This document shows positions 19,889-47,036 of a stretch of 64,000 nt of DNA, piece by piece. The stretch's first letter is position 1, and the number at the start of each line of letters is the position of its first letter. Position numbers and translations under genes: made by a program. This DNA is from Ascochyta rabiei (lineage: Eukaryota; Ascomycota; Dothideomycetes; Pleosporales; Didymellaceae). The notes under the pieces are model-generated. The model did no database searches. It had not been told where the DNA came from and saw only the letters and a program-made list of their open reading frames with translations. The DNA is taken from the NCBI RefSeq assembly GCF_004011695.2, contig NC_082413.1, forward strand, positions 868,001 to 932,000. The letters run 5' to 3'.

Positions 19889-22800
19889 TTACATCACACC
19901 CTCAAAGTCTTCCAGCGACTGCTGCTTCGTCTCACCTGCGCTCTCAAAGATAGGCTGACTGGCCTTTTGCTGCAGGTCCTCCAGCGCCTGCCCGACTTCC
20001 TTCAGGACTTCATGGGCCACCGGGATCCACTCTTCGAACGTGACGATCTCGATACCCAGCTTCTTGCCACCCTCTTTGACGAAAGCCTGGCACTTCCACT
20101 CCCTCAATGGTTCGGCGTGTGGATACAGCGTCTCAAACTTAGCATCAACTCCATTCCCAAACGGCAGCTCCTCAACCCAAGCAGGCGCCTGATGTACCAC
20201 GGTATCAAACCAGGTCACCTCGTTAGCATCCCAGTCCGTGCAGTTCTCTACAATCTCGGCTAAGCCCATACTCTCGAAGCCTGCGGATTCGATATGCTGC
20301 GCTTGAACAAAGTTGAGAAGGTCGAGATGTGTCCACCCAGCCTTGAAAGGAACGCGGAAGGGGATGTACTGCCATGTAGGTCCGAAGATGCGATCAGCGC
20401 TGGGAGCGCCGAGATTGCGGCCTGTGACTACTTCGCCAAAGACGACATCCTTGACGTTGAGGCGGTTGGCGAGGACGAGGGACCAGGCGGCGGTGGGGAG
20501 GGAGCCGATAGTTATGTCCTTGGGACGTGAGGAAATGTCGAATTCAAGATAGATGTCTGCCATTTTCTTGTCTTGGAGAGGAATCTGTGGCTTGAGAACG
20601 GACATCTGGGAGCCAGCGAGAAGCTGTTGCCAGTAGGGGATGCTCTTGGGAATGCTATTCAGGACGACGTGGTTTACATGCTTGGTGAAAGGTACGGTTT
20701 CGAAGACGTCCGTGCCAGCGTAAAGAGCAGAGAGTTGATCGAAGAGAAGCGGGAGGCAAATCTCGTCGTACTGGGCGTGCGAAATGCGGAACGCAAGGGT
20801 AGAGGCGCCAGTAGAGGAGGATCTGAATAGTGTGAAGCCAATGAAGGACGAACCATGTGGCTTCGGAGCTTGGATATCTTCCTTCACATAGCCGTGCGCG
20901 AAAGTGTTGATGTCCTCGCCTTCAGGAACCGCCACTTCGCTGTACGGAACTTTGAGGCTGCGGATTACAAGACCCAACGTCTTACCGCCATCAACAACGA
21001 AAACAGTGCGCAGGACCTCGTTACGAGCGACAAGCTCCTGACAGGCGGACGCAAGCTTGTTCGAGTCGATGGCTGTAGTAAACTTGATAAGTTCGTAGCG
21101 CAGCGAATAGCGCGGCAGATCTACTGTGCCTTCGACGGCAAGCTGCTGTAGAGGCCGTGTAGGATAAATGTCGACAATATCCCATTCCGGGTTCTCAAGG
21201 TAGGACACCATGCGATCTGCACTGAACAAGCCCGCATCAGCTCCTAGAGCAGCGAATGGGGCATCGACGTTCGCTTCCGGCTCGCCCGAGGAAACCTCCT
21301 CAGCCTGGGAAGCCAGCTCGGACAACGACTTGCTCTGGAAGACTTGTGCCACGCTGATGCTGAGCCCTTGTGAGCGTATATCAGACACAAGACGCATGGC
21401 GCCGATCGAGTCACCACCAAGCTCGAAGAAACTGTCATTGGGGGAGATCTCGCCCTTGGACATGCCCAAGATGCGAGCCAGCACATCCAGTAACTTATCC
21501 TCCTTTTCGTTACCGATACTCGAAGCAAGTTCTGACAAGGACTTGCTCTGGAAGATCTGGGCAACCGATATGGCCAAGCCCTGCATTCTTGCTTCAGACA
21601 CGAGCCTCATGGCGCCGATAGAGTCACCACCCAGTTCAAAGAAGCTGTCGTTGGGGCTAATGTCTGTCTCTGGCATACCGAGGATACGGCTCAGAAGGCC
21701 ACGAAGCTTCTCCTCGTTCGCGGAGAGTTCCTTAGCCTGGCCGTCCTCCGTGACTTGTGCTGGCAGCATGTCCACACCACTGTCAACCATGACATCCGTC
21801 GGCCTCAACTTCAATGCATCCTGCAGCTCTTCTGGATCCAGGATAGCCACATCGCCGAGCTTGCTCTCGGGGTTTCCAAGGAAAGCGGTAACGATACGGT
21901 CTAGCACAACAAGCACCCTTTCCATAGCTGCCGAGGCGATGCAGTTGGAGTCGAAGCTAGCCATGATCAAGAAGCCGTTCTCGTCGAGCGTGCAAACAAG
22001 CATGAGTGCGTAGGTATTGAACTTCAATGCTTCTCTTGCAGCTTCGGCATCATCAGCAGGCAGGAATGCATCGCCCGGCGCGTTTTCTAATGTTCTTCCT
22101 TCATTCCCGTTCTCATCTTCCTTCGGGTGGAGAACAAGACCAGTGCGCAACTCACAAGCGTGACGTGCGTCTTTGCTCAGCCGACGGATGTTCTGCAGAC
22201 CGAGATGCTCGTGAGGGATCTGTTGGATAGTCTGGGTGTGCACTTGCTGCAGGAACTCGGAGATGGGGCGGTCAAGATTCAGACGCACACGCACTGGAAT
22301 GGTGGTGATCATGGGGCCCTCGATCTGTTCAATAGCTTGGACAGGTGCGGAACGACCTGTGAGGGTTTCGCCAAAGACGATGTCGGAATGACCCATGTAC
22401 AGTGAGGATGTCAGGGCCCATGCACCGCGGATGATGGTTGCGAGGGTTAGCTTTGAATGGGCCGATGTTGGCACTGTCACATAGTGCTCGAGCAAAGAGT
22501 TGGCTCGTGTGATGTATCCTTTGTGTGGCAGGGGGGGGAACTGATGTGGGCTTGCGCCATTCAGACGCTCCCTCCAATAGTCGTTAGCGACAGTAGGATC
22601 GAGACTGGTCAGATACTTGATGAAGTTCTTGAAAGACGCTGGACGGGATGTATCGAGGCCAACGAAAGCACGATTGATGCGATCGAAGACAAGCGGCATG
22701 GACCAGCCGTCGTACACCGCGTGGTGCATGGTGATGATGAAATGGGCTTTATCGCTGCTTCCATCGTGGACGACACCGTATCGGAAAAGTGCTTTTCCAA

Positions 22801-25797
22801 GGTCCATAGTCTCTTCTCGATCAAGTTCGAGATACTTCGCAAGATCTGAGCCATGGTCACGCATAAGCTGGCCGTCTTTGAGAACAACCTGGAACAGGCC
22901 ACGACCGGGGACGTTCACGATGCGAGTGCGTAGGATTGGAGAGCCTTCAACGGCCTTGTCAAAAGCGTTTTTCAGACGATATGCCATATCGACAGGGAGT
23001 TCGGCGACACGCTGGGCAACGTAGGCATCGAGGAACTTGGCAGAGAGAGCCATTAAGCCTTCTTGTAGAGGTGTGCAGGGGTACACATCTTCGACCAGCG
23101 AAGCATTCAGACCACACAGCTCAGCACTTTCAACTTTAGACTTGTCGGCATCCCAGTCCTTTCCGATCATTGAAAAGGGAACGACCTCGCTCGTGTCTTC
23201 CTCGAACAGAGGTCTGGCTTTGGCAGCCATACCGGACAAGGTCGGGTTCAGCATGATATCCGGAACCGTCAGGATAAGGCCTTCTTCCCTTGCCGCGGGC
23301 ACGAGCCTCATGGCCCTTAGAGAGTCACCGCCCATACTAAAGAAGTTGTCGTTAGCGCCGAAGTCCGCGTCGCCGCCTAGAATTTTCGCCCAGATAAGAA
23401 TCAACTTGAGCTCCGTCTCAGTGGTGGGTTCTTTCTTCTCGGAAAGAAGAGCGTTGAAGCGTCGGAGATCCTGACGAGTGACTGAATTGCCAATCTCGCG
23501 CAGCCTCTTCCTGTCCGTTTTGCATGAGACAAGTAGGGGCATCTTCCAGAGCGGGATGTAAGCGCTCGGGACCATGTACCCCGGAAGATCGTTAAAGAGA
23601 TGCTTTGTCATCCCCTGAAGAGCAGCCTGGAACTTATTGGAAAAGCTACCAAACACTTGTCCATCGAGATGGCGCATACCGCTCTTTCTCTGTTCGACCA
23701 GAAACGCAACCAGTGTTTGCTCTCCAGTGCCACCAGGCTTGATGACTTCAACAGCCAGTTGCGTATCTGCAGATAAGTGCTTCTGCATGTTGTACTCGAT
23801 CTCTGCGAGCTCGATACGTTGTCCACGGAGCTTGACTTGCTGATCCTGACGACCGACGAAAATCACTTCACCATGACCATCTGGGTCGTAACGAACGAGA
23901 TCACCGGTCTTGTAAAGCCTGCCCTGTCTACCAGGGAACGACTTACTCCCCTTGGTCAGGAATTTGGGGTTTTCAATGAAAACCTCCTGAGTCTTTGCCG
24001 GGTTGTTCAGGTAGCCCATGCCAACAATGGGGCCTTCTATCAGCAGCTCACCAGCTGCACCGACTGGAACGAGCTTGTTATGATCCTCCGGATCAGCAAG
24101 CCATATTGCAGCACCTGTACCGGTACCCATAGTAATGTATGGCTTAGATGCAACGTTACCGTTGATCGTAGCGCCGACTGTGCACTCGGAGGGTCCGTAG
24201 GCGTTCACAATCCTAGTCCTTTGGCCCCATGAAGCGGCATCACTTGCTGAGGTACCCTCACCCCCAAGTGCGATTGAGTCTAGGTGATCCAGGATATCCA
24301 CATCCAATGTGCGAGCGACCGAGGGTGTCATACCAGCTAAGGTAACCCGCATATCTCGCATTGCACCGCTGAGGTCGTTCATTCGGCGTTCATCAGAGGG
24401 CGTGCAGAGTGTACCGCCGTGTGCAGTCGTGCAAAGCATAGAGTCGATGCAAACGTCGAAAGCATAACTGGCAAAATCGAGCACTCGAGAGTGCTGTCGG
24501 TAGCCTACGGCAGATGCTCGTGGTATCGCACCGGACGTGTACTGACCGTGCGAGATCAGGCAACCCTTGGGCAAGCCCGTGCTACCACTTGTGAATTGGA
24601 TGTAGAGACGAGCTGACGGAGACACTTTCGGCAAAGTCGTTTTTGGCTGCTGTTCGGCGTATGGGCCATACACCTTCTCGAACTTGGATGCAGAAACCGG
24701 GACGATGGTGGCTGAAGGTGCAACTCGCGCAGCAAGCGAAGATTGGGTTTTCGACGCGATGAAGGTAGTAGCATTGACCTGCTGGACGACCGTTCGCAGG
24801 CGGCCTTCTGGCTGTGCCGGATCTAGTAGTGCGAAGCACGCACCTGACTTCATGATCGCTAGCACAGCGACGATTGTCCATCGACATTTCTCGAAAAGAA
24901 CTGGGATGATCTGGTTCGGCGAGTCGTCGAGAGACCGCAAGATTTGTGCCAAATGCGTGGAGTAATCTTGAACTTGCTTGTAGGTCAAACTCCCATCCCA
25001 CGCTTCGATTGCATTCTTCTCAGGTTGCTTCTCGGCTTGCTCTGCGATAAGTTCGTGCATGCAAGTCTGCAGATCAGGAGGTAAAGGTGAGTTCCAGTTC
25101 CAGATCTCATCGAGCTCAGACTCGGAGATGGTGAGGAAGTCTGAAATTGGGGTATCAGGTCTTCGTGAAAGGGTATCAATGATAAAAGAAAAATAATGCA
25201 GTTCAGACACAGCCTGGTGTCGTGACATTGGTGGTAGCCATTGTGAGGTCGCTTGTCTCGAACTCTTTCCAAGGTCGATCGAGACCTCAAAAGTCCACTG
25301 CGCATTCATCAGTAACTGAGCAAAAATCAATGGACTGTGTTCCATACTTCATCTTTTGTGCCATCGTTCAGGAAAATGGTAGCTCCGTCCAAACAGGCAT
25401 CTTTCAGCCTCAGATCGTGGATCTTTGCAGCTAGGGTCGCGGCACTGCTGTGCTTTAGCAAGTCCAGGTCGTTGGTTGGTATACATTGGCGCTTATCTGA
25501 GCCAGCGCCTTTAATTCCCCATGAGAATCGGTGGAAGACATCTCGTTGGTATCTTTGTACTAGAACAGTCCATGCCGTAAGAAGAGCGTCAAGCACTGCA
25601 TTCGGTGACTGTTCCTGAAGAATTGTCACATCCACCTCGTTGGTTTTGGTGGAATGGCCATTCATCTGAGTGTGTCCGTTGGCGTATGAACCATTCTCAT
25701 CTACGTCCAAGGTGCCATTGCTGTTGATCTTGATATCAGGTTTCTCTTGCGATACCCCACCATACCGCAGGGTGTGGTCACCATCCGACAGATGCAT
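19889..25797 (-). CDS. siderophore nonribosomal peptide synthetase (SidD/NPS6-like)
   Basis: Two exons, 25797-25348 and 25297-19889, giving 1952 aa. The 50-nt intron starts GTATGG, ends GCGCAG and keeps phase 0. Domain order by motif: a partial condensation-like N-terminus (to about 215); adenylation about 230-760 (FTSGSTGLPKG at 385-395, NAYGPSE, YKTGDLVRYDPDG, KTDRKRL near 743); thiolation T1 (MGGDS, Ser 809); condensation C1 with an intact HHAVYDG (about 1008-1014); two adjacent thiolation domains (LGGDS, Ser 1376 and Ser 1447); terminal condensation C2 with SHAQYDE in place of HHxxxDG. A single A domain followed by T-C-T-T-C fits an iterative hydroxamate siderophore synthetase. Gene partners (SidF, SidI, ABC) point to the extracellular fusarinine/coprogen type. 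It is probably repressed by iron through four ATCWGATAA sites upstream. A SidC-type origin is the main alternative. Confidence 0.85.
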
Positions 25798-27385
25798 CTT
25801 TCAGAACACAAGGAATAGGAGTCCTTCTTCTGGTCGTTGGTGTGATAGATCGTGTGGCAAGAAGATGGAGGGATGCGGGTCCTCTTGCGTCTGAGGGATT
25901 GTCCTAAACACTCCTCCGTATAGGAGGCCAAGCTTCACTGCGAGTTGGAGTGACCGAGCACTCCACCATAGCTCCCGTTCCTATGAGAGAAAAAGCTAGC
26001 CCTCCACACCTTAGACCAGGATGTAAGTCCGGTACACACGCAGCACGGCCAAGCTGTCTTGTTAGGACACCAGCCGTCCGCGTCATCTTCGTCTCCGTCA
26101 ACGTGGACCCAGGATCTGTCTGGCTACGCCCTCTCGTGCCAGGCATGTCGTTTTTCTGACGTAAATGTTTAAGGTCAACGGATTGCATTCAATCAAGCTA
26201 GTTCAGTACCCCTGTTTAGCTGTAAGAAAAAAGCACGTTGTCTGGTGTGCCTTGACCCCATATTTAGCGGATCAGATAAACTTGGATTGGAGGCTTGTGT
26301 TTAGCTGCATCTGATAAGTTTATTTGAAACCATAATGATCATAGTGCAAGGAACGGAGCTGCCTATTGGGGCCACAGCAAAATGCGTGTCATGCAGCGTG
26401 ACATCGGCGGGCTGCAGATCCTATTCCATCTGATAACGGCCAAAGCTCGGAGGAGTCAGATCAGCTAATGAGGAGTTTCGGGCACGATCGATCTCTGTCC
26501 GATCGACATCGAATGCACCTCTTTGGGACCTGCTGCATCGCGTCGAGGCGTGCTCGACCTAGAAGAAGGGCCGACGAAGTGGTGCTGTGCTGTATGCAAG
26601 CCATCTGCGTGCAATACCTATGCGCCAATTGTGGATTCCAACGAATGTGTTTGCGCATGTGGTAAAATGATTTTTGAGATGTAGAATACACCCCCCTGCA
26701 ACCGTTGCACCCGTGCAGGCCACTGTTGCGACGGGAAATACCTTCGCTTGCAGCGGATCTGATAACCTTAGCTTCACATGCCAGGACGAGGCACAGTTAC
26801 GGAAGAGGCGTTCATCGAGCAGGTCTCAATGTCTGTAGCGTAATTTTTAACTGTAGCAGATGATTAAAATGTGAGATGTGTGGGTCTGGCGCGCTAGTCC
26901 AGAGGAATCTTGATGACCTCTCGGAGTCTGCTCCACATCAATCCTGCTCTCTAATTTGGTGTTGACGAATACCAAGGATCTGAATGTCCAGTCGACCTCT
27001 CAGCTCCTATCTTCGACTTGGAGTAGCTTGGCACCTCTTAGACTTCTTGGTTCGACACACTGCTGGAGGAAGGTAAACGCTCTTAATTCTGGACAGTCCC
27101 GTACCTCATCTTGAAGCTGTCATCGCCTGTTCGCACTTGAGTCAACATCACCTGACAGCCAGCGCCAAGCAGTCATCCTGCAGTACTTCTTATAAACTCC
27201 AGACCCGAGCTTCCTAGTACGGAGTAGTGGGGGCTGGACCTCGTACCATCTTCCATTTGAGGCTTCGACCTGCGCGTGTGCAGCCTTGACTTAAGCCGAG
27301 AAACATGTCAGTACCCGTGAACTTACTCTGACTGATTCTTGTCGCCTACCAAACTTACACCGGCAATTAGTTTGATCTGTGCACT
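25798..27385. other. divergent promoter region of NRPS and GNAT genes
   Basis: About 1.6 kb between the divergent NRPS (minus) and GNAT (plus) starts. It contains four ATCWGATAA sites, annotated separately. No further gene recognised; small frames such as 25904-26188 minus lack domain signals. Confidence 0.65.
26271..26765. promoter_or_regulatory. four iron-GATA (SreA-type) sites, NRPS/GNAT promoter
   Basis: Exact matches to ATCWGATAA, all on the plus strand, at 26271-26279 (W=A), 26309-26317, 26428-26436 and 26757-26765 (W=T). This nonamer is the known binding site of the fungal iron regulators SreA, Sre1 and Fep1-type GATA factors, which repress siderophore genes when iron is plentiful. 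The group sits 470-970 bp upstream of the NRPS start and 620-1115 bp upstream of the GNAT start. It could control both. Confidence 0.8.
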
Positions 27386-28144
27386 ATGGGTTTCGTGGTC
27401 CTGCCTGCTCTGGTTGCAGATGTCAGCGCGGTTTACGACGTGTATTTCGCGGCTTTCAAAGACAACGCCATCACGCGGGCCCTATTCCCATCAGTTACAA
27501 CGGAGGACTTGATAAACCCGGAGTCTGAGTTCCGGTACGGGACCCTGAACTGAGGCTGTTTGCAGGATATCCATCGCTAATTATACCCCAGCAAGGGACA
27601 CACTGCGCACGTATTGCAGTACTGGCAAGACAGTCTTACACAATACACGTTGAAATGTGTTGATTCAGAGAATGGCAAGGTTGTTGGTATGGCGCTATGG
27701 GATGTATACATCACCCCTAGTACCTGGAAGAAGGGTGAAATTGGGTGGTTGCAAGGAAAAGAGAGAGAGCGCGCTGATGCACTGATAGGTCCGCTTTGGG
27801 ACACCAGAGAAAAAATGTGGAACAACGAGCGATACCTGTATTGTCATGTTGTGGCAGTTCACCCAGACTCGCAACGCAGAGGCATCGGCGAGTTATTGGT
27901 CGATTATGGCAAAAAGATCGCACTACAAGCGCATCTACCCATCTACGTAGAAAGTTCGCAAGCCGCAGTTAAGCTGTACGAGAAGTCAGGTTTCCGCTGG
28001 CTGAAGGAACGTCCTGTCCACAAAGGAGTCGACCTTTGGCCTGGAAGGACGGACAATAACCAGGAGAATCACGACGTTCCTCTGTTCGTGTGGATTCCAG
28101 AAGGGGCAGAGAAGCTGTTGCCGGAAGCCGTAAAGCTTGCTTAA
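27386..28144 (+). CDS. GNAT-family N-acetyltransferase
   Basis: Two exons, 27386-27534 and 27592-28144, giving 233 aa. The 57-nt intron has an unusual GTACGG donor; the join gives EFRKGHTAHVLQYWQDS. GNAT core: the beta4-alpha3 acetyl-CoA loop reads HVVAVHPDSQRRGIGELLVD (about 160-180; R-R-G-I-G is the Q/RxxGxG/A motif), followed by IYVESSQAAVKLYEKSGF, the usual motif B. Family members acetylate amines, and fungal members are diverse. Its divergent promoter is shared with the siderophore NRPS and contains iron-GATA sites. A role in tailoring the siderophore, as SidG acetylates fusarinine C in Aspergillus, is therefore possible. That link is inference: no SidG-specific residue was checked. The gene ends 67 bp from the 3' end of the ABC transporter. 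Confidence 0.8.
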
Positions 28145-28211
28145 AATACTGAATGCAATGATATCGCATATCTATTAATGATACTACTCATACCAACACA
28201 ACGACAAGATA

Positions 28212-31200
28212 CTAGTCCAACATTTGATGCAGAGCATTAACACGATAGCTCTCACTCCGCTGAACGAGCTCCTCATGACGGCCTTGATCTACCACTTTAC
28301 CGCCGTCCACCATGAAGATGACATCAGCCCTAGCGATTGTCCGTAGCCGATGAGCGATGGCAATGACCGTAACACCGTGGCCTTTCACAGCGCGCTCGAG
28401 ACCAAGTTCGAGGGCCTTCTCGCTCTCCGCATCAAGAGCACTTGTGCTCTCGTCGAGCAGTAGCAATTTGGGTTTACGAACAAGTGCACGCGCTATCGAC
28501 AGTCGCTGACGCTGTCCGCCTGAAAGCTGCGATCCATTGGCACCACATTCGGTGTCGTAGCCTTGTGGTAGCTCTGCAATAGTTCGGTGGATGTTGGCGA
28601 GCTCGCATGCCTCTTGGATATCGGCATCTGATGGTTCGTGTCCAGGTCTAGCACCAAGCGCGATGTTGAACTTGATGCTGCCCTGGAAAAGAACGTTGTT
28701 CTGGGGTACGTAAGCAATGTCATCCCGGAACGAGGTGCCATGGTGGCGCGAAATGTCGACCCCGTTGATGGAGATGCTGCCCGCGGAAGGTGAATAGAAA
28801 CGCTCAAGCAGCGCAAGAACGGTACTTTTGCCTGCACCGGAAGGCCCGACAAGGGCACAAAACTGGCCAGGTTGAATGGAGAGCGACAGCGAGGTCAGTA
28901 CCGGCACACCAGGACGTGCGGGGTAGGAGAACTGAACATCCTTGAAAACTACGCGAGCACCACCGCCAGGTACAGCAGGGGTAGGCGAGTCAGCGAGCGC
29001 TTCAACATCCCGCTTCTCCTTATCAATGGTATCGAGATTGAGCGACGATCTGCTAGATGCTGTACCTGATGGATCGTTCCCCAGATCCACAACTCCACAA
29101 ATGCGCGAGATAGCGCCCTTGGCTTTGGAGAGCTCAGGGGCAAGGGTAAAAAGCTGACCCCACAACTGTGCCGAGAGCAGCATGGAAATGAGGACTACGA
29201 AGAAGGCAGTTTGGTCGTATCGTCCTTCGATGATGTTCTTGGAACCCCACCAGTAGGCAAAGGCGTAGATGAAGCTCCCACAAGAATTGGCAATCGCTAG
29301 CCAGACGTTAGTTTTGAAGCTCTGCTTCACCATCTCCTTGCGTGGTGCCACAAGAGACCTTCGATAGGTATGGATGATCTCTTCTTCAATCGAGAGAGCA
29401 TGAACAGTACGAATGTTTGCAACAGCTTCGGTCGTGACGCCGATGGATGACGAAAACGCGCCTGCATGCTTGACTGCGAACTTTCCAATGGCGTGAAGTT
29501 GCATATATCCGGCTCCCAGTAACAAGGGAACAATGACCAGGCACACGATGGCGATTCTCCACGCAACAATGTGTGACAGGATGATAGCCGCGATGAAGTT
29601 GACAACGACCGAGAACAAAGTTCCAGCAATAGAGCCACTGAAGCCAGCCAGTGAGTTGCCGTCTTTTGTGATGTACTCTAGGAGCTGATTAGGGTTCCTG
29701 CCTTCGGACTCATGCCATTGCAAGGGTTGTTCTAGAAGAGAGCGCATCGACAAGACACGCACTTTGTAGATGAGGCGCTCTGAGATGAGTCCGAAGGTCG
29801 CCCAGCTTGTGAAGTTGGCAAAGAATGATACACAGGCGACCATGAACCACATGCCCGCGAGCAGCGCTCCTTGAGATCTGATATAGTCTGACGGGTTGCA
29901 AGGCGACATGACGCCCATGACGTTTCCAAACAAAAGTCCGGACGCGGAGTACTGACCACCAACAATCAAAGCGCCCAGGAAGGCCAACAGAAGCAGCAGC
30001 AGGTACGGCCGAACCAGAGGTCCCATAGTCCTCGAAATCGACTTCGCGACTATCTCTCCGTTTGCTCCCTTCAACGGCTCTGGCTTTTCGGCTGGACTTG
30101 AGGGCAGCGCATCTGTATCGTTGACGGCTGACGCTGAATGCTTGTTTTTGATTAGTTCGATTTCATCATCGTCAAGACTTGTTCTTGAGCTTGATGCACC
30201 GTCATCCGTGGGTTTTACGGTTTGCAAGCGTATCATGTCAGCGTACGAGCCATTCAGTGTCAAAAGCTCGTCGTGAGTGCCTTCTTCGATGATATCGCCT
30301 TTCTTCATGACGATAATTTTCGATGCGTTTCGAATGGTAGAGAGACGATGAGCGATAGAGATCACAGTTCTACCCTTGGATGCCTTGTCAATAGCAGCCT
30401 GGATGCGCTGTTCACTGGCAGAGTCGAGTGCTGCAGTAGCTTCGTCGAGGATAAGTATCCTAGGGTCGCGAACGAGAGCACGGGCAAGAGCAACTCGCTG
30501 CTTCTGGCCACCACTTACCAGGCTTCCGCTCGAACCGACAAGCGTAGCAAGACCAAACTCCAAGCGATCGATAAAGACAGCCACATCAGCTAGCCCTGCC
30601 GCGTGCTGCACGAGCCGGAGAATCTCAACTACGTCAGGTCCAGCTTTCTCTACTACCTTTGTAAGATCTTCGCCTTCTCTAACTTCCTTGGTAAGATTGG
30701 CCAGTGCGTTGCTGAGGAGAACAGTTTCTAGGTGGGAGTGAGCTGGCGAGTTGACGAGACCTAGCGCAATGTTTTCCAAGATTGATCGATCAAGAAGAGA
30801 CGGTTCCTGGGGAACAAGGCTGATGAATCCTCTTAGTGATTTTATGTTGATGTCCTTGATGTTGCGGTTGTCAAGAAGAACATCCCCAGCCAATGGGTCG
30901 TAGAAGCGGCTGATGAGACTGGCAATCGTCGATTTACCACTGCCAGACAACCCGACAATTGCAGTAAGCTTACCAGCCTCGCAGTTGATTGAGATGCCGT
31001 TCAATACAGGATGGTCGGGTCTAGAAGGATATGTGAATTCGACATTACGGAACGTGAGTTTGCCGTCTACCACAGAAGGCTTTTCAGCAGATGTCGAAGT
31101 GTTGTCAATCGTAGGTTGCGTTTCGATATCCTTGCGAAGACGGTCGAAAGCGCTAATAGCACCAGTAAATAGAGGAAGCATAGGTGCAATCTGGCTCAAA

Positions 31201-32196
31201 ACAATGGCGCCTAGGTCGGTCAGTGAGAGGCTCGAGGTATTGGAAAATGTACTAACCATCGAGAAGGATGAAAGTCACTGTGTAGATCTCTCCAATCGTG
31301 TCGTTGCCCCTGCCGTCGACAGTATCCGCGATTCTCTTGCTACCCTGCCAGTAACCAAGTGCACTGGATGAGTAAGCGATAAAGTAGAGCAATCCAGCCA
31401 TTACAGCTGCAGCTACAGCCTTCCGGATACCGGCATGACGAGCATTTCCTAGATGGTCTCGGAACTTCTTCTCAAGCCTCTCATTAGCGCCAAGTGCGTG
31501 AACAAGACCAATGTTGCTCAATGCCTCGGAAGCAAGGGCACTGGCGGATCCAAAGTATCCTCCAACACTGACTGTGTATTTGCCCACGTAATGGCCGCCG
31601 ACGACTGCCATGAGAAGGAACGCCGGGATCAAGGAAACGAGCATCCCTGTGAGCTCGGCGTTCTTGATGAAACCAACGATGTATGCTGTTACACAGAACG
31701 AGAGACAAGTCAGAGCAACACCGACCTTCTCGCCCGTACCACCCTCGATCGCCGAGATGTCGCCATTGAGACGGGAAGACACTTCCCCAGACTGGAGATT
31801 GTCGAAGAAGGCAAGATCTTGTCGTAAGAGGTTCCTCAGGTACCGGTCTCGAATGCGTTGCGCTAGCCGTTGTGATGCTATATTCCAGCAGACAAGATGA
31901 ATATAAATACAAGCGAAGCTTGCAATGCCGATATATACAAGAAGGAGAACCTTTTGATCGATAGACGACTGGTCCCCAGCACCGCCTGCACCGGCCTGGT
32001 TGCTGCAGGTTGCATCGTTGATGTCATCAACGAGTTGACCAAAAATAATACCAACAAGTGGGAATGGGACGCCGGCTGCAATCGCAAAGGTAGCTCCAGC
32101 AAAGATGAGGAGCTTGTCAAGCCAGGTAGGGTTTGCGTAGAAGAGGAGCTGAAAGAAGCCAAGATATGGCGCGAAGGATGGCTTCTTGATCGCCAT
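28212..32196 (-). CDS. full-size ABC-B (MDR-type) transporter, siderophore locus
   Basis: Two exons, 32196-31257 and 31210-28212, giving 1312 aa. The 46-nt intron has a perfect CACTGAC branch site, and its removal gives TFILLDGAIVLSQIAP. Architecture TMD1-NBD1-TMD2-NBD2. NBD1 has Walker A GLSGSGKST, signature VSGGQKQ and Walker B ILILDEATAALD. NBD2 has GPSGAGKST, LSGGQRQ and LLLLDESTSALD. Both ATP sites look competent. The linker (about 710-760) is acidic/Ser-rich. In Aspergillus (sitT) and Cochliobolus an ABC-B gene sits next to the SidD/NPS6 synthetase, so export or homeostasis of the siderophore or its precursors at the plasma membrane is the best guess. One ATCAGATAA site lies about 310 bp upstream of its start. 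Substrate and direction are not shown by sequence. Confidence 0.9.
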
Positions 32197-32577
32197 CGTG
32201 CCTGCGATACCAGGTCGAATTCTGGTGATGGAAGCTCACTCGACGTCGCGAAGTGATGAGGTTTTCCAGGAAGACCTGCAGGATGGGTACAAGGGAGCTG
32301 TGCCCCATCCAAGACGCGATGGCCGGGATCGACATAGTGCGTGGATCCTGTGCATAACGTCAAAAGGCATAGCCTCACGTGAAAGCATTGCACAAAGGGA
32401 GGGGTGTTGGGCCCGCCGCGGGTGGCGCTAAATGGTGGAGAGGGCAGACGTGTCGCTCCAAGCGATGCCGGACGGAAATTGAACAAGGTTAATCAGATTG
32501 GGCCAAGGATCAGATAAAAAATTTGCTAAATTATGTAACGATGGCCCCACCCTGCACCTTCCCAATCAAACAGCTGT
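32197..32577. other. ABC transporter promoter region
   Basis: Between the ABC transporter start and the stop of the SidA-like gene, both minus strand. It contains one iron-GATA site. Nothing else recognised. Confidence 0.6.
32509..32517 (+). promoter_or_regulatory. iron-GATA (SreA-type) site, ABC transporter promoter
   Basis: Exact ATCAGATAA, 313 bp upstream of the ABC transporter start codon. It is single, but it is one of the 12 copies confined to the siderophore locus. Confidence 0.65.
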
Positions 32578-33852
32578 CTAAATCCTCGCCTGCACCACGA
32601 GCCCACTCCGTGTCTCTGACGCCGGTGACGACAGTGCACTCACTAGTTCCCCGGCCCGCAGCGAGATATCCTTTGCCAAGGAGCGACCACCCTCTGAATT
32701 TCCGGACATCAACCACATACGAGCGTCAGCAACGGCGCCTCGCTTGAACTGAACCTCTTCGAAGCTCTCGCCTAGCTGATGGCAGCCGAGTACAAGCGAG
32801 TTGAGGCTTTGCAGAAGTCCACTGCTTGAGAAAGGAGCTGCTGCAGTATCCCTGATGATGATATTGGCCTTGGAGCATGGCTCAGAAGCATCTTTGCCAA
32901 AAGCGAGACGGAGGGCGTATTCGCCCTTGCTGGCCACCTGTTTCTCGTAGGCCCGCATATAGATGGTCTGAATGAGTTCGGACGAGTCTGTAACTTGTTT
33001 CCGGTCGCAGGTCGGCTTGGACCAGATCGAGCACAGTCGTGGCTGCGGTGGCTCTTGTTCACCGAGCACCTTCAGCGGAGCAAGCTCGTCATTCTCCGTC
33101 ACGACTGTGATGTTGCCAAGGCGAGGGCATGACAGCAAGTCGTCTAGGATCTCGATCGTCTGCGAACTGGAGCCGACAATAGCAACGTTCAGTCGTGGCT
33201 CGTAAAGTTGACGCAGCTCTTCCCTTCGCGACAGATAATCGGCCATGGGCATAATTCGCTGACCAGCAAGGAAATTGATGGTCGTCAGCGCCTCTGGTTT
33301 CGCACTGCTGTGCTTTCCTGGCGTGGGAACGGCAATGTTCCTCGTTCTGAGCAAGTATGTCTTGCCGTTTCCGTCCTTCACCGCAAGCTTCCAGCTTCTT
33401 ACCATGTTGTCTTCGGTCTCTGAAGCTACGCCCACAACCTCGCTGCCATATCGAACTTGATCCGCGAACTGTTCAGCGCACCACTTCAAGTAGTCTTCGA
33501 ACTCATCGCGCAGAGGATTCAAGCGGTCGGAGTTTGCGAATTCGACCAGGCGGTTGCGGGCAAGCAGGTAGCAGGCGTAGCTGAACGCCGATCTTGGGTT
33601 ACGAAGGGTTGCGAGGTCGTAAAGGAACGGACCCTCCATGCGTGACCTGGGCAAATGAGACCCAGAATGCCATGAGAACGAAGGCTTGCGCTCAATGAAC
33701 AGCACCTTAGAACCGGTGCGCGCTTCCCGGTTGGCAATGGCAGTTGCTAGCTGAGCTGGGCCGAACCCAACACAAACGAGATCATAAAGAGCTGGAGAAG
33801 ACGAACTGGAGGTGTTGTCCAGTTGCCTGGGTTGTTGCTGAGTGGCTGACAT
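32578..33852 (-). CDS. divergent L-ornithine N5-monooxygenase (SidA family)
   Basis: Single exon, 424 aa from the Met of MSATQQQPRQL. The frame stays open to an ATG at 34056, adding 68 residues and bringing the total (492) near the family's usual 500. The N-terminal FAD module is clearly SidA-like: LVCVGFGPAQLATAIANREA, FSWHSG, DLATLRNPRSAFSYACYLL and EFEDYLKWCAEQFAD. The rest is degraded. The NADPH loop, normally G-S-G-Q-S-A, reads GSSSQTIE. The position of the ornithine-contacting lysine is changed (RMEGPFLYDLATLR). The middle NPE/FVNE-type segment is missing. The C-terminal D..xATGY motif is replaced by NSLVLGCHQLG. Either a recently altered enzyme, one with a new substrate, or a pseudoenzyme. 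A canonical sidA should exist elsewhere if the siderophore is made. It is divergent from sidF. Confidence 0.8.
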   Translation of the reverse strand: MSATQQQPRQLDNTSSSSSPALYDLVCVGFGPAQLATAIANREARTGSKVLFIERKPSFSWHSGSHLPRSRMEGPFLYDLATLRNPRSAFSYACYLLARNRLVEFANSDRLNPLRDEFEDYLKWCAEQFADQVRYGSEVVGVASETEDNMVRSWKLAVKDGNGKTYLLRTRNIAVPTPGKHSSAKPEALTTINFLAGQRIMPMADYLSRREELRQLYEPRLNVAIVGSSSQTIEILDDLLSCPRLGNITVVTENDELAPLKVLGEQEPPQPRLCSIWSKPTCDRKQVTDSSELIQTIYMRAYEKQVASKGEYALRLAFGKDASEPCSKANIIIRDTAAAPFSSSGLLQSLNSLVLGCHQLGESFEEVQFKRGAVADARMWLMSGNSEGGRSLAKDISLRAGELVSALSSPASETRSGLVVQARI

Positions 33853-34415
33853 GATGACGTCTCGAGATGTTGTTCTGAGCCGAGATCTTGGAGTTGCACT
33901 GGGCCCTGAGTTGATGTAAGAAAAATGTGCTTCAGGAGGCAGCAGTCGGCTCGCAAGATTGATGGTACGATCGCTACAACTCGAGATCCGAATATTGCAT
34001 GAGCTTGCGCACTGGCCTAACAGACAAGCTGTACCAGCAAGCTGCTTCACTGACAAAATGTCACCAATTTTCTAGCGTCGGTGTTCAAGTGTCCAGGGTC
34101 GGTGCATATGCCAAGTAACGTGGAGCTGCATCTGGACTACAGTTTAGCACCCGCATTGGCGTGTTTTTGACCATCCATTCGGAGCTTTCCATCGCGCCGG
34201 GGCCTTGGTCCACGTACCGGCAACTCAAGAACTGGTAAAATACACGACTAATACTGCGTATTGATGTCAGCCAGGTATGGTTTAACTCTCTTCCAAACCT
34301 CGGCTTCTGTGGATTGTTACTCTTACTGTCTTCACACCTCAAGCTGTGGCTGCCTCAATTGCCTTGCAGTACCCAAAAACTTCCACTTCTCCTTGTTCAC
34401 AGTCGATCGAACGCA
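33853..34415. other. divergent promoter of SidA-like and SidF genes
   Basis: About 560 bp. I read it on both strands and found no ATCWGATAA and no GATAA at all, unlike the other promoters of the locus. It may instead hold N-terminal coding sequence of the SidA-like gene (to 34056). Confidence 0.55.
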
Positions 34416-35796
34416 ATGGTGCAGCAAACTCAGAAACCACTCGCTGAGGCGGAGCCGTTGTTGTTGAAGCTTCCGCATCCATACCTGACAGCCTACACTG
34501 TCAAGAACGTGGCTCAGCAAGGCCAGGCTGTCAGCAATCAAATCTCGCTCTCCAGGGCAGAGAGCAGTAGCGAGGGTATTCCTCCGCGAACTCAGCTGGA
34601 CAACGCTTCTATCTCATTCAGCGATATTGCGTTTCTTGCTCAAGACGCGGTACCGCCCAAGGGCGACAACAGCTCCTGGGCACGAGCACGCAGATCACCT
34701 TACTTAACCGTCTCTTGGACAGGCGAGCGACCTAGCGTTGCGCAGCTGTGGCTGATCTCTTATGCATTGGTATCGCTACATCCTTTGGTTGAGAACCTTC
34801 GTGTGCTCTTTACTGGCAGAGATTCACAGTCGCTAGCCCAGGAACTCTACTCTACAGGCCTGTACCACCCTCACCCAAAGCCTTCCAATACATCATCACC
34901 ACAAGATGGCCATCTCCTTCTGCGAGGAGCCTTTTGGCAGGGTGCTGCATCTCCGTTTGGCCCTCGCCCTGTCTGGGCACCACGATTAGATGCATCAGGC
35001 AAGCCAAAGACCCAGCATTATCCAGCTTTCCCACATCAGACAGCACCATCTACTCAGTTCCCAGCCCTACCGCGGCACACTATGCATCCTGTTAGAGAAC
35101 CGAAACCTGAGCCAGGGTCGGTCATTTACAGTCGATGGGTACCGCATCTCAAGGAGCACTTCACTATGATCGCTCTCGATTACACCAACCCTGAGCACCT
35201 TGGTCTCTTCAACAAGTGGCAGAACGACCCACGTGTTGCTGCTGGCTGGAACGAGACCGGGACGTTGGATCAACACCGCGAGTATTTGCGAAAGCTGCAT
35301 GACGATCCACACGTTCTGACCATGTTCGCGGCATTTGACGATGTGCTCTTCGCCTACTTCGAGGTCTACTGGGCAATGGTATGTCGATCCTTAACGCCGC
35401 TCGTCCACCTACATGAACTAACGCACCTAACAGGAAGATCACATGGGCGCTCACTACCGGTCGGAACTCTATGACCGTGGTAGGCACTCACTTGTTGGTG
35501 ACATCAGATTTAGAGGCCCATACAGGGTCTCTGCATGGTGGTCAGGGCTTATGCATTACATGTTTCTGGACGAGCCACGTACCTGGAACCTCGTCGGTGA
35601 GCCGGCGGCTACAAGTAGCACTGTACTGGCATATGATTTTGCGCACGGTTTCCATGTTGAGAAACTCATGGACCTGCCACACAAGCGCAGTGCGCTCATG
35701 ATGGTGAACAGAGAGAAGTTCTTCACGTTAAGCCCCTTCGTCTGGGATGGCGAGAAAAAGGTACGACCGAGTCTGGACGCCTTAGCTAAGTTGTAG
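34416..35796 (+). CDS. sidF: SidF-type hydroxyornithine acyltransferase
   Basis: Two exons, 34416-35378 and 35434-35796, giving 441 aa (Aspergillus SidF is about 460). The 55-nt intron has a GAACTAACG branch region; splicing gives VYWAMEDHMGAHY. Residues about 240-410 form the GNAT-like AlcB/IucB acyltransferase domain: FNKWQNDPRVAAGWNETG, AYFEVYWAMEDHMG, YDRGRHSLVGDIRFRGP, RVSAWWSGLMHYMFLDEPRT and KLMDLPHKRSALMMVNREKFF. SidF moves anhydromevalonyl from CoA to N5-hydroxyornithine, the committed step to fusarinine and TAFC. The protein ends in Ala-Lys-Leu, a PTS1-type peroxisomal signal, in line with the known peroxisomal site of SidF. It is divergently paired with the SidA-like gene and followed by a spacer full of iron-GATA sites. 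Confidence 0.9.
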
Positions 35797-37256
35797 AAGA
35801 CATTATGGGGTTTTGGGGTTGGACATCCACAGCAATTTAGCGGCAAAACATAGCAGTACATATTTATACGCATTCGCACATTTAGATTGGACCACACGCT
35901 CTGAGAATCATGGATTGATGTTTCTTGTCAACAGCTACCGACCGGTATTGTTGAGATACAGAGTTTCCAAAACGTGATTGCAAGGTCAAGCCTGAGCATG
36001 ATGCGAGGTGCGCTAGCGATGAATAGCACGCGACATAGCCTGTAACTATCGACGCTGTATTGTTTCAGCAGAAAACGACTGGTACGGCCGAGAGTGCCTG
36101 AATAAAGCCGGATATACGCAGGGTGCAGATCAGATAACCTTAACCGAGCCCGGTAGCCGTGGCTCTCCGAGCAGAAATTTTATCAGATCGAGGCCTCCCG
36201 TCCGTATTGGCAAGGCCTCGCACATTTGCTCGGCGTTCGTAAAGCACTGGCAGATGCAGGGTCAGTAGTGTTTTGCGTCCCAGTCTTTGTGGATGTAACA
36301 CGTAAGTGGTTGTGCAGCTGGCGTGCAGCAAGCGCCTGAAAGCACGTCGCCGGCATCATTGAGCCGATTGGGTTAATTTAGTGGTAAAAATTATCAGATG
36401 CGACCCGCTAGGACCAGGAGCTGGAGCTTGTGGGCTGATGAGGCATCCCCACTCAAGGTAGATCTGATAACGTTGCCTTGTAACGGTACTTCGTAGTTGC
36501 GCCGATTACGGTGCGTCCCGCATTTCTCTTGCTCCAAGCCTTTTTTGTTGATTCCCTCCATCTGATAAAAAATTTCGCCGCACCATGTATCAGCGACTCC
36601 ACAGGACAGCTCACCAATGCCGTAAGCAGCTACCATCTTATCAGATGAGATCGATGTCCGCCCCATGTACAGTAGTGCAACCGGGGTAGAACCGCGCAAT
36701 GCGGTCATCGGCCGCCATCGCCCACCACTCTACGTGACGATCCCTCTTCGGCGAGGAAAAATTTGGAAGATCATGCTCACAGCTTGTTGGTTTACGCCAT
36801 CGGGATCTGATAATCGGCGCTGTTACCAAATGGAGCAATGACCAGACACAGTGTGCTTCACGGATCCCAGGATCTCACCCTACGAGCCGGTGCAAAGGCG
36901 CGAAGAATACGCGGCCTGTATGCCCGCGGACTGCAATGATGGCACGCAAGAGTGCTTTCTGACGCAGCTATTAGATCCGAGGCATCAGCGAAAAGCTCTT
37001 GCTGCTTTCCCCACTGAATATGGCGAAGATCGGGACTCCAAGCTTCTAGCATCAGCTCTTTGGCGGTTTCTGGACCTTACTGTGTACTGTTGCTTCGTTG
37101 TCACTCTGTCTGACTGCTTTCCGCTACCTGAGTGGACATTCCGTGCTTGTCATCATTGATAGCCCAAAACCCTCTTGATATTCAAGCAACCAATTGCTGT
37201 TGCGAAGCGCTGAAGCCAGCCTGAGCGCGTGGTATCTCGAGAAGAAAGTAGCAACT
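35797..37256. other. intergenic region dense in iron-GATA sites (sidI promoter)
   Basis: About 1.46 kb between the sidF stop and the sidI start. Seven ATCWGATAA sites lie between 36129 and 36813, annotated separately. A CCAAT pentamer occurs at 37190. No gene recognised. Confidence 0.65.
36129..36813. promoter_or_regulatory. seven iron-GATA (SreA-type) sites, sidI promoter
   Basis: Exact ATCWGATAA at 36129-36137 (W=A), 36462-36470, 36560-36568 and 36805-36813 on the plus strand, and at 36180-36188, 36391-36399 and 36638-36646 on the minus strand (read as TTATCAGAT). Seven copies in 685 bp against about one per 65 kb by chance. The group lies 444-1128 bp upstream of sidI and downstream of sidF. 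It may also act as an enhancer for the whole locus. Confidence 0.82.
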
Positions 37257-39173
37257 ATGGCACAGGTGTACGATCAGTCTCGCAATGATGCCTTCCAGCG
37301 ACTGAACCAAACTCTCCTACAAATCGATCCATACATCCTGCCACCATACCCAAATCTCTCAATCGTCTCTGGTCCTCTCGATCCTCCTCTCCTACAGTTG
37401 ACGCTTTCACAACTCCTTTCCCAGCAGGCCGAGCGCCATGCAGACAACGAAGCTATAATAATACCATGGACGGGTGCGCGGTGGACATACAAGAAGCTAT
37501 GGGAGGAGTCGAGCTTGCTTGCACGAGCTCTGTTGAAATATGGCGTTCGCTCAAGAGACAGGGTGGGAATCATGAGCGGAAACTGTGAGAAGTACATTGC
37601 AGTCTTCTTCGCATGCGCACGAGTTGGCGCGATATGCGTAACGCTCAACAACACCTACACGCCAACAGAGATGGAATATGCGCTGAAGCACACGAGTCAG
37701 TTACGCCTGCCTCAAAATTGCCGGATATGACAATGCTAACTTCCTTAGGGTGCAGTGTACTGTTCACCACACCAACAATCGCACGTTTCGACAACCAGCC
37801 GCTTCTGGAGCGGCTAAAGGCTAAAGATCTATCTGCAGTATTACCAGACTTGAAGACTGTCTGTCTAATACGCGGTGACGACAGCAGTTTCATAAAATAC
37901 GACGACCTTCTCCATGAAGCAGAGATTATACCAGAGCATATCTTGGGCATTTTTGACGGCATCGTCAGTCCTCATGATGTAGCCAATCTTCAGTTCACAA
38001 GCGGCAGCACTGGTAACCCCAAGGCTGCTATGCTGACACATTAGTAAGACCTCACCACCTCTATTATACTAACAACTTTGCTTATCAATGTAGTAACCTC
38101 ATCAACAACTCACGCTTCATCGGCGACCGCATGGACTTCACAGAAAATGATATACTCTGTTGTCCACCGCCTCTGTTCCACTGCTTTGGCCTCACACTTG
38201 GTTTGCTTGCAACACTGACGCACGGTGGTAAAATTGTCTTTCCAGAGGAGTCGTTCGACCCCGCCGCATGTTCAAAAGCCATCTCTGATGAGCGGTGCAC
38301 TGCGCTTCACGGCGTACCAGCCATGATGGAATCTATCATTGACGTCCCGAAGCCTACGGGCTGGTCCTCTAAGCTTCGCACCGGGATTGTTGCGGGAAGT
38401 CCCGTACCTCGCTGGCTCATGGAGCGTATGGTCAATGAGCTTGGAATGTCAGACTTCACATCGAGCTACGGTCTGACCGAAGCTTCACCTACTGTGTTCA
38501 ACGCACATACCACCGACTCTCTCCATGCGCGACTGACAAGCGTCGGTACTGTACTTCCTCATGCTCGAGTCAAGATTGCAGATCATCAGGACCGAGTCGT
38601 GCCCATCGGTGTTCGTGGCGAGCTTTGCATATCAGGTTACCAGCTTTGCAGAGGATACTGGGAGAACCCTGAGAAAACGGCTGAGTTACTCGTCAGGGAT
38701 GAGCATGGCGAGCTGTGGCTGCATACTGGTGACGAAGCGGTACTTGATGTGGATGGGTACTGTACGATTACGGGCCGTTTCAAGGACATCATTATTCGAG
38801 GTGAGATGAGTCCTTCAGCTACTGGCCATCATCAACTGACATAAGTCTAGGCGGTGAAAATATCTACCCTCTCGAAATCGAAGAGCGTCTGGTACAGCAT
38901 CCATCTATCGCCCGTGCCATTGTTGTCGGCGTGTCACATCCTCGCTACGTCGAAGTACCTGCTGCGTTCCTTCTTCACAAGGAAGGCACCGAGAAGCTAG
39001 GGCTAGAAGATATCAAGGCCTGGGTCAGAAAAGTACTGGGCCGACACAAGGCACCTATGCACGTGTTCTGGCTTGGAGAGGACTGTGATGGAGAGGTGCC
39101 TTTAACAGGCAGCGGCAAGATCAAGAAATTTGTCTTGAGAGATGTCGCGGAAAAGACACTAGAGCAGAAGTGA
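37257..39173 (+). CDS. sidI: SidI-type acyl-CoA ligase (mevalonyl-CoA ligase)
   Basis: Four exons, 37257-37695, 37749-38043, 38094-38800 and 38851-39173, giving 587 aa (Aspergillus SidI is about 590). Introns are 53, 50 and 50 nt with good branch sites (GCTAAC, ACTAAC, ACTGAC). Adenylate-forming features: LQFTSGSTGNPKAAM (P-loop near residue 229), PPPLFHCFGL, SSYGLTEASP, and the hinge GRFKDIIIRGGENIYPLEIE restored by the last splice, then a C-terminal Lys in GSGKIKK. SidI activates mevalonate to mevalonyl-CoA, linking the isoprenoid pathway to fusarinine-type siderophores. The N-terminal RLNQTLLQI partly matches a PTS2 peroxisomal signal. Seven iron-GATA sites lie upstream. Other fatty-acyl-CoA ligases share the fold; the cluster decides for SidI. 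Confidence 0.87.
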
Positions 39174-46500: not shown

Positions 46501-46665
46501 CGGTCGAGAAACGTCCTGCGCGTGACATCAGTATGCGCTCGAAGCAATGTAGCGATATCAAAGCACCCACCCTCTCTTCTCGTGGTATGCTTCCAGCTCC
46601 TCAATAAACTTGTCGTATTCTTCGGTGCGCTCAATGGAGGGTTCTCGCGGTTTGCTGGGCGCCAT
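43531..46665 (-). CDS. RSC9: chromatin-remodelling complex subunit RSC9 (ARID + RFX)
   Basis: Three exons, 46665-46571, 46515-46294 and 46243-43531, giving 1009 aa. Both introns (55 and 50 nt) lie in the ARID domain, and splicing restores it: EEYDKFIEELEAYHEKRGTF, then DLLRLYKRVNEEGGYDKV, RRLATDFL, LVKTAYYKNLAAYE. After an acidic linker comes a long helical armadillo-like region (about 230-590), then an RFX-type DNA-binding domain at about 614-697 (QLWSAYNAAFQEA ... KDFITNVSTTFGGASAQVL ... TIRGIRPR), and Cys/His segments (CCWIAPN ... WEHVVGAHL; CYWANCSHF ... GQHIKTHL) resembling C2H2 fingers. This layout matches fungal Rsc9 and metazoan ARID2 of the RSC/PBAF class of SWI/SNF remodellers, which act in the nucleus. 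The gene diverges from a REC114-like gene. Confidence 0.88.
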
Positions 46666-47036
46666 GGTTCAGTGCGCGCACAATCTCCAGTACTTAGTAG
46701 TGTCAGTCGCGGGACACCCACAGGCTGAGTGGTGTGCCTGACACAGACGCGGTGTCGGTGGTAACTGCGATTGTCGCGGCGCGTTCGGTCGCGGTGCTGC
46801 TGGATGAACACCAGAATGCCAGAGCTCCAGTTCCACTTTGGCGCGAACCAACAACGCTAGTTGGTGCACGTGACGCGAACCCATAGTTCCTTCCTTCCCA
46901 AGCCATCTCTCGCCTCAACAACACATCTGAGCTGGTGGAAAGCTGCCTGTGGGCCACAAAACAAAAGCTTGTTATTATTTTGCAGGCCGACTGCAATTGA
47001 TGCTTAACTGACACTGCAGCTTGCTCACAGACCGTC
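46666..47036. other. divergent promoter of RSC9 and the REC114-like gene
   Basis: 370 bp between two start codons. No specific element recognised. Confidence 0.55.

What the first reader, a model, noticed from the sequence alone, without database searches (positions are those of the whole stretch)
36129..36813. Seven exact iron-GATA sites in the sidF-sidI spacer
Seven copies of ATCWGATAA (four plus, three minus) lie within 685 bp. Chance expectation for this nonamer on both strands is about 1 per 65 kb. The motif is the established target of SreA/Sre1-type iron repressors, and the spacer belongs to a siderophore locus. The density is far above the one or two sites usually needed, so this may be an enhancer-like or long-range control element for the whole locus.
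Basis: partly seen in the sequence, partly recalled or inferred. Interest (0 to 1): 0.82.

Follow-up and report, generated by a model that had tools for sequence, protein, structure and literature searches.

The report
Dense iron-repressor site array before sidI
The stretch of DNA in front of a siderophore gene of this fungus carries seven exact copies of the binding motif of a known iron-sensing repressor, the densest such cluster found in its genome, and it most likely switches that gene off when iron is plentiful, which is a known kind of control in an unusually crowded form.

Summary
In detail: seven exact ATCWGATAA (four plus, three minus) lie at 36129-36813. The genome has 375 exact sites in 40.9 Mb; I placed 373. 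This spacer ranks first: 7 in 685 bp, against at most 4 in any other 1-kb window among placed sites. The motif marks the fungus's own iron genes: both FTR1/FET3 pairs, two siderophore-type NRPS genes, the other sidA and a hapX-like gene. An SreA orthologue with two GATA fingers and the cysteine-rich segment is present. The sites sit 444-1120 bp upstream of sidI, the range seen at other iron genes here. Their flanks are unrelated, so no tandem duplication. The iron-GATA reading is well supported. SidI is nearest to Epicoccum nigrum (Pleosporales), an order in which binding of such a factor has been shown.

An enhancer or long-range element for the whole locus is not shown. One fact keeps it open: the divergent sidA2-sidF promoter has no HGATAR at all, though chance gives that about one time in three. 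I judge it a known kind of operator in exceptional copy number. No binding, expression or orthologous-spacer data could be had.

The parts
36129..36813 (.). array of seven exact ATCWGATAA sites (36129+, 36180-, 36391-, 36462+, 36560+, 36638-, 36805+), all seven preceded by G or C
35797..37256 (.). sidF-sidI intergenic spacer, 1460 bp; no Pfam match in six frames; pyrimidine-rich stretch about 36996-37195 before sidI (core promoter inferred)
37257..39173 (+). sidI-type acyl-CoA ligase gene, 4 exons (model by eye), 587 aa, 89% identical to an Epicoccum nigrum protein; presumed target of the array
34416..35796 (+). sidF-type GNAT transacylase gene (Acetyltransf_8), 441 aa, C-terminal AKL (PTS1-like)
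33853..34415 (.). sidA2-sidF divergent promoter, 563 bp: no HGATAR on either strand, two CCAAT boxes
32578..33852 (-). sidA2: an L-ornithine N5-monooxygenase (Lys_Orn_oxgnase), the weaker of two strong matches in the genome
32509..32517 (+). single ATCAGATAA 313 bp upstream of the ABC transporter
28212..32196 (-). ABC transporter of the locus
27386..28144 (+). GNAT acetyltransferase gene (start codon by eye)
26271..26765 (+). second array of the locus: four ATCWGATAA between the NRPS and GNAT genes
19889..25797 (-). NRPS gene (AMP-binding, Condensation and three PP-binding stretches; NPS6/SidD type inferred from context)

Best explanation
The seven sites form a homotypic operator array for the fungus's SreA/Sre-type iron-sensing GATA repressor in the promoter of sidI. 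When iron is plentiful, SreA (two GATA fingers, cysteine-rich segment between them) occupies several of the partly palindromic ATC-W-GATAA sites and shuts off sidI, and so one branch of extracellular siderophore synthesis; [quoted passage not shown] CCAAT boxes lie among the sites) drive it. Many equivalent sites should give tight, steep, mutation-tolerant repression. Shown here: the sites, their genome-wide rank, their company with iron genes, the presence of SreA and of a hapX-like gene. Inferred: binding, the direction of control, and the effect of multiplicity.
For: Exact sites; rank 1 among 373 of 375 placed sites. Of the nine places with at least 3 sites in 2 kb, four lie at unmistakable iron-acquisition genes (sidI, NRPS of the window, FET3/FTR1, another NRPS with ABC transporter), three at transporters compatible with iron use (two MFS, one mitochondrial carrier), two at unclear genes. 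Checks that do not start from the motif: the two FTR1 loci that a family search finds both have sites, 4 and 2, and the other sidA, found by family search, has sites 652 and 832 bp upstream. A hapX-like gene (bZIP; Hap4-type motif just below Pfam's cut-off) has one pair of sites on each side. SreA with two fingers and a CPGGGRCNGTGGQQGCSGCP segment at C16:699052-699609. Six single-site places (of 20 drawn at random) show no iron-acquisition gene among 10 ORFs scanned. At loci I classed as iron-type 41 of 42 sites are preceded by G or C, against 29 of 37 elsewhere (Fisher p 0.011; grouping made after seeing the genes). Literature, passages only: ATCWGATAA is 5.4-fold enriched upstream of SreA-regulated genes of A. 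fumigatus (PMC2610380); mutating the one such element of the ftrA promoter derepresses it (PMC10294635); Curvularia lunata SreC, of the order Pleosporales, binds such boxes (written ATGWGATAW in the results, ATCWGATAW in the methods) in yeast one-hybrid tests, and the FET3 and SIT1 promoters in an iron-dependent way by gel shift (PMC10938068).
Against: No binding or expression data. Orthologous spacers of related species could not be obtained, so conservation of the array is untested. Site pairs also occur at genes with no evident iron link: 8 of the 12 pair loci fetched (L017, L019, L020, L021, L024, L025, L027, L028; two or three ORFs of each scanned), and two of the nine densest places have unclear genes, so the motif alone is no proof of SreA control. 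One published element can be enough for repression (PMC10294635), so the need for seven is unexplained. The S-prefix class of iron-type loci includes transporters of unproven substrate and the window's site at 47147, which has no evident iron link.
Confidence: 0.8

Rival explanations
1. Shared locus control: the array represses not only sidI but also, across the sidF gene body, the sidF/sidA2 divergent promoter about 1.7-3.0 kb away, which has no GATA site of its own; together with the four-site array 10 kb away it silences the whole locus.
For: Zero HGATAR in the 563-bp sidA2-sidF promoter and only two in 32578-35795, both inside genes; 12 of the genome's 375 sites within 10.5 kb, two of the four 1-kb windows with four or more sites bracketing sidA2-sidF. 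Distal GATA sequences mediating iron repression are reported for Ustilago maydis sid1 (title of An et al. 1997 seen in reference lists; the paper is not held).
Against: With 1.9 HGATAR per kb in the window zero in 563 bp has probability 0.34. sidA2 is the weaker of two strong sidA matches (178 against 252 bits) and may be under other control. Sites lie at ordinary distances from sidI. No contact or expression data.
Confidence: 0.18
2. The array serves another GATA factor (for instance AreA, light or other GATA factors) or an activator rather than the iron repressor.
For: Seven GATA-finger matches over the cut-off at six places in the genome, two of them in SreA; GATA factors share the HGATAR core.
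Against: The extended ATC-W half is what was found at siderophore and SreA-regulated genes in A. fumigatus and Histoplasma; seven of the nine HGATAR in the spacer have it. The densest clusters of the genome point to iron genes.
Confidence: 0.08
3. Chance, repeat expansion or neutral turnover: the sites are leftovers without function.
For: Nothing found; only that function was not tested.
Against: Poisson expectation about 3e-14 for such a run in the genome; flanks unrelated, so not duplicated; three other of the nine densest places lie at unmistakable iron genes.
Confidence: 0.03

Closest known systems
SreA regulon operators ATCWGATAA of Aspergillus fumigatus (PMC2610380; ftrA element PMC10294635)
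   Same: exact motif, siderophore and reductive-iron promoters, SreA with two fingers plus cysteine-rich region
   Different: the ftrA promoter there works with one extended site plus a neighbouring GATAA; here seven exact extended sites in 685 bp of one promoter
Histoplasma capsulatum siderophore cluster sites (G/A)ATC(T/A)GATAA (PMC2275787)
   Same: clustered siderophore genes each with at least one extended site; divergent SID4-SID1; ABC1 beside NPS1; consensus reported to bind Sre1 in vitro
   Different: first base here is mostly G or C; the divergent sidA2-sidF promoter here has no site, whereas each gene of the Histoplasma cluster had at least one
Curvularia lunata SreC targets (PMC10938068) and Alternaria alternata AaSreA (PMC10146468), both Pleosporales
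   Same: same order, same kind of factor; C. lunata SidA, Nps6, FreB, Fet3, Ftr1, Sit1 carry the element; iron-dependent binding in vitro at Fet3 and Sit1
   Different: no array in the passages read; sidI and sidF do not occur in the C. lunata text (0 occurrences)
Multi-GATA promoters of nitrate genes (A. nidulans niiA-niaD; Fusarium fujikuroi NIAD and NIIA with 9 GATA elements each, PMC5348485)
   Same: many GATA sites in one promoter of a metabolic gene; AreA-dependent chromatin opening at niiA-niaD
   Different: GATA elements for an activator (AreA), not nine-base sites for an iron repressor
Second siderophore cluster of Cladophialophora carrionii (sidD, sidF, sidH, sidI, sidA2, ABC transporter; PMC10382037)
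   Same: gene content with a second sidA and an ABC transporter; SreA and CCAAT consensus sequences reported upstream of sidI
   Different: another class, Eurotiomycetes; number of sites not compared; no sidH was looked for here

Membership tests
SreA/Sre1 iron-GATA operator | exact extended motif ATCWGATAA | tested here: met
   seven exact matches
SreA/Sre1 iron-GATA operator | upstream of an iron-acquisition gene | tested here: met
   444-1120 bp upstream of a sidI-type gene in a siderophore locus
SreA/Sre1 iron-GATA operator | same motif at other iron genes of the genome | tested here: met
   both FTR1 loci found, the other sidA, two NRPS genes, hapX-like gene. Exception: sidA2-sidF promoter, none
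SreA/Sre1 iron-GATA operator | genome encodes SreA: two GATA fingers with a cysteine-rich segment between | tested here: met
SreA/Sre1 iron-GATA operator | bound by SreA in the presence of iron | not testable with these tools
   needs ChIP or EMSA
SreA/Sre1 iron-GATA operator | iron-dependent repression of the neighbouring gene | not testable with these tools
   needs expression or reporter data
Enhancer or locus control element | acts on promoters other than the nearest one | not testable with these tools
   only an indirect hint: sidA2-sidF promoter without GATA sites
Enhancer or locus control element | lies at a distance unusual for ordinary promoter sites of this genome | tested here: not met
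   444-1120 bp against 45-1107 bp at other iron-type genes, some start codons uncertain
Homotypic binding-site cluster | more copies than other promoters with the same motif | tested here: met
   7 against at most 4 per kb among 373 of 375 sites
Homotypic binding-site cluster | conserved in related species | not tested
   no fungal DNA collection could be searched; one search gave proteins only

The most novel reading that the evidence does not exclude
A multi-site iron silencer: seven SreA sites downstream of sidF act together as a shared element that represses sidI and, over the sidF gene, the GATA-less sidA2-sidF promoter, perhaps through a spreading or looping repressor complex with the four-site array at the other side of the locus. 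I recall no locus-level iron control element of this kind in a fungus, but made no exhaustive search for one.
Probability: 0.17. Interest if true: 0.65.

Novelty: new member of a known kind. Interest (0 to 1): 0.38.

Why it matters
As far as I recall, fungal iron repressors have mostly been dissected on promoters with one or a few sites. A natural promoter with seven exact copies in unrelated flanks, ranked against nearly every other site of the same genome, is a ready system to ask what copy number does: steepness, leakiness, or reach to neighbours. The GATA-less sidA2-sidF promoter beside it makes the question of reach directly testable. The list of clusters also gives a draft iron regulon of a fungus near Epicoccum; in plant-associated ascomycetes an NRPS of this type (NPS6) is a conserved virulence determinant (title of Oide et al. 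2006 seen in a reference list).

Tried and rejected
Recent tandem duplication of a site-bearing unit: rejected, flanks unrelated. Hidden or decayed gene in the spacer: no Pfam match in any of six frames with stops read as X; the longest ATG-to-stop frames have 104 aa or less and look like chance; they were not searched for relatives. Genome-wide depletion of the motif, which I first noted (note) because the tool's reversed control gives 1503 hits against 375: withdrawn, since the dinucleotide shuffle of the window predicts about the observed rate. Fixed spacing or helical phasing of sites: none seen by eye, not tested by statistics. CCAAT is more frequent within 150 bp of 70 sites (66 found, 41 expected), but sites in clusters are counted repeatedly and promoters in general were not used as control; no common spacing is evident. 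SRE (TCANNCCA) and AtrR (CGGN12CCG) motifs: two and none in the spacer, none of either in the sidA2-sidF promoter. Of the 38 chains of sites with gaps up to 1500 bp the window holds 2, the fetched regions 21, L029 one more; 14 were not looked at, 9 of them self-overlapping pairs. A set of 20 single-site controls was wanted; six of 2 kb each were fetched and 10 of their ORFs scanned. A viral-contig search for relatives of sidI was not completed (frame errors). Paper searches that gave nothing or little.

Full report
What is there. The window has 13 in all: four at 26271-26765, one at 32509, seven here, one at 47147. Shuffles that keep dinucleotides give 0.57 on average and 3 at most.

Surroundings. 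Pfam and reading frames give, from left to right: an NRPS (19889-25797, minus), a GNAT acetyltransferase (from 27386, plus), an ABC transporter (28212-32196, minus), an ornithine monooxygenase here called sidA2 (32578-33852, minus), a sidF-type transacylase (34416-35796, plus, ending in AKL), the spacer, and a sidI-type ligase (37257-39173, plus, four exons, 587 aa), then an FAD oxidoreductase with a Rieske domain from about 41398. The ligase is 89% identical over its whole length to a protein of Epicoccum nigrum (Didymellaceae, Pleosporales); lower in the list of the best 120 stand two proteins named 'Acyl-CoA ligase sidI' (59-60% identity). The names sidF, sidI and NPS6/SidD rest on domain, context and these hits, not on tests. 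The gene set resembles the second siderophore cluster of Cladophialophora carrionii (PMC10382037, passages).

How rare. The genome (40.9 Mb, 23 contigs) has 375 exact sites. By splitting the pattern I placed 372 of 375 and found one more in L012. Among these 373 only this spacer has more than four in 1 kb. The other windows with four are the NRPS promoter of the same locus, C11:1047126 and C22:932571. C1:290135 has five in 1.2 kb. Twelve of the 375 sites fall in the 10.5 kb from 26271 to 36813.

What the motif marks. I fetched 20 regions that hold 21 of the 38 chains of two or more sites, and scanned 40 of their ORFs in four Pfam calls. Places with three or more sites within 2 kb: FET3 with FTR1 (L010), an ABC transporter with an NRPS (L011), two MFS transporters (L014, L015), a mitochondrial carrier (L013), an ABCB10-like transporter beside a diflavin-type reductase (L009) and a pyridine-nucleotide oxidoreductase (L012). 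Two pairs of sites flank a gene with a bZIP match and a Hap4-type match just under Pfam's cut-off, taken as hapX (L016). Pairs: a second FET3/FTR1 (L022), two MFS transporters (L018, L026), HMG-CoA synthase about 1.8 kb off (L023), and eight places without an evident iron link. Tests that do not start from the motif: the two FTR1 loci that a family search finds are L010 and L022, and the other sidA, a better match to the family than sidA2 (252 against 178 bits), has sites 652 and 832 bp before its ATG. Another transacylase-type match at C9:200917 has no placed site within 80 kb. Six single-site places gave ankyrin, LysM, DUF1989, dioxygenase and GTPase matches in 5 of 10 ORFs scanned, none in the other 5; in at least two of the six the site lies inside a long open frame. 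At loci I classed as iron-type 41 of 42 sites (the window's 13 included) are preceded by G or C; elsewhere 29 of 37 (p 0.011). The grouping was mine and made after seeing the genes.

The factor. Of eight GATA-finger matches, seven over the cut-off, two lie in one 191-aa frame at C16:699052-699609, with the segment CPGGGRCNGTGGQQGCSGCPAFNNR between them. Two fingers with a cysteine-rich stretch between is what PMC2610380 gives as typical of this class (passages).

Mechanism. In A. fumigatus ATCWGATAA was found 5.4-fold over-represented upstream of 49 SreA-regulated genes, and mutation of the one such element in the ftrA promoter abolished repression by iron (PMC10294635, passages). In Curvularia lunata, of the same order, SreC binds such boxes in yeast one-hybrid tests, and gel shifts with the FET3 and SIT1 promoters needed iron (PMC10938068, passages). 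In Alternaria alternata SreA represses and HapX with CCAAT-binding proteins activates siderophore production (PMC10146468, abstract and passages). By this analogy the array is a repressor platform for sidI. Five CCAAT boxes lie in the spacer.

Promoter or enhancer. The sites are 444-1120 bp from the sidI ATG. Other iron-type genes here have theirs at 45-1107 bp, for instance the window NRPS 474-960 and the other NRPS 551-988 (the starts of one FTR1 and two MFS genes are uncertain). The position is thus ordinary; the number is not. For a wider role speaks that the divergent sidA2-sidF promoter (563 bp) has no HGATAR at all. With 1.9 HGATAR per kb in the window this has a chance of 0.34, so it is a hint only. 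The sidA2 and sidF starts are 2.3-3.0 and 1.7-2.4 kb from the array.

What could not be done. No expression or binding data exist in these tools.

Verdict. Real, strongly non-random, very likely functional, and explained by a known system; unusual in copy number. Whether the number serves reach, strength or robustness is the open and testable part.

Noticed in passing
window 33853-34415: The sidA2-sidF divergent promoter has no HGATAR on either strand, although both FTR1 pairs, the other sidA and both NRPS genes have extended sites upstream.
   Followed up: partly
L029 (G000:C7:276495-280265) and L011 (C7:280000-289900): Another, better-matching sidA lies about 7 kb from another NRPS and an ABC transporter, with sites at both; the window's sidA is a paralogue.
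   Followed up: partly
L009 (G000:C1:286000-295900): Five sites in 1.2 kb between an ABCB10-like ABC transporter and a diflavin-type reductase; iron link unclear.
   Followed up: partly
L012:4572-4854 (C22:932571-932853): Four sites in 283 bp beside a pyridine-nucleotide oxidoreductase, possibly an alternative NADH dehydrogenase (inferred).
   Followed up: partly
L016:6307-6325 (C18): Two sites stand back to back one base apart on one side of the hapX-like gene, with another close pair on its other side; fits the published SreA-HapX feedback loop.
   Followed up: no
genome-wide: At iron-type loci the motif reads SATCWGATAA (41 of 42), whereas Histoplasma was given as RATCWGATAA.
   Followed up: partly
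window 35785-35796 and 37257-37330: SidF ends in AKL (PTS1-like) and SidI has RLNQTLLQI near its start (PTS2-like, pattern recalled), which fits peroxisomal siderophore enzymes.
   Followed up: no
genome-wide: The reversed control word AATAGWCTA occurs 1503 times against 375 for the motif; reason unknown, perhaps a repeat family.
   Followed up: no
window 47147-47155: A lone exact site near a minus-strand gene (frames 43531-46856) with no evident iron link.
   Followed up: no
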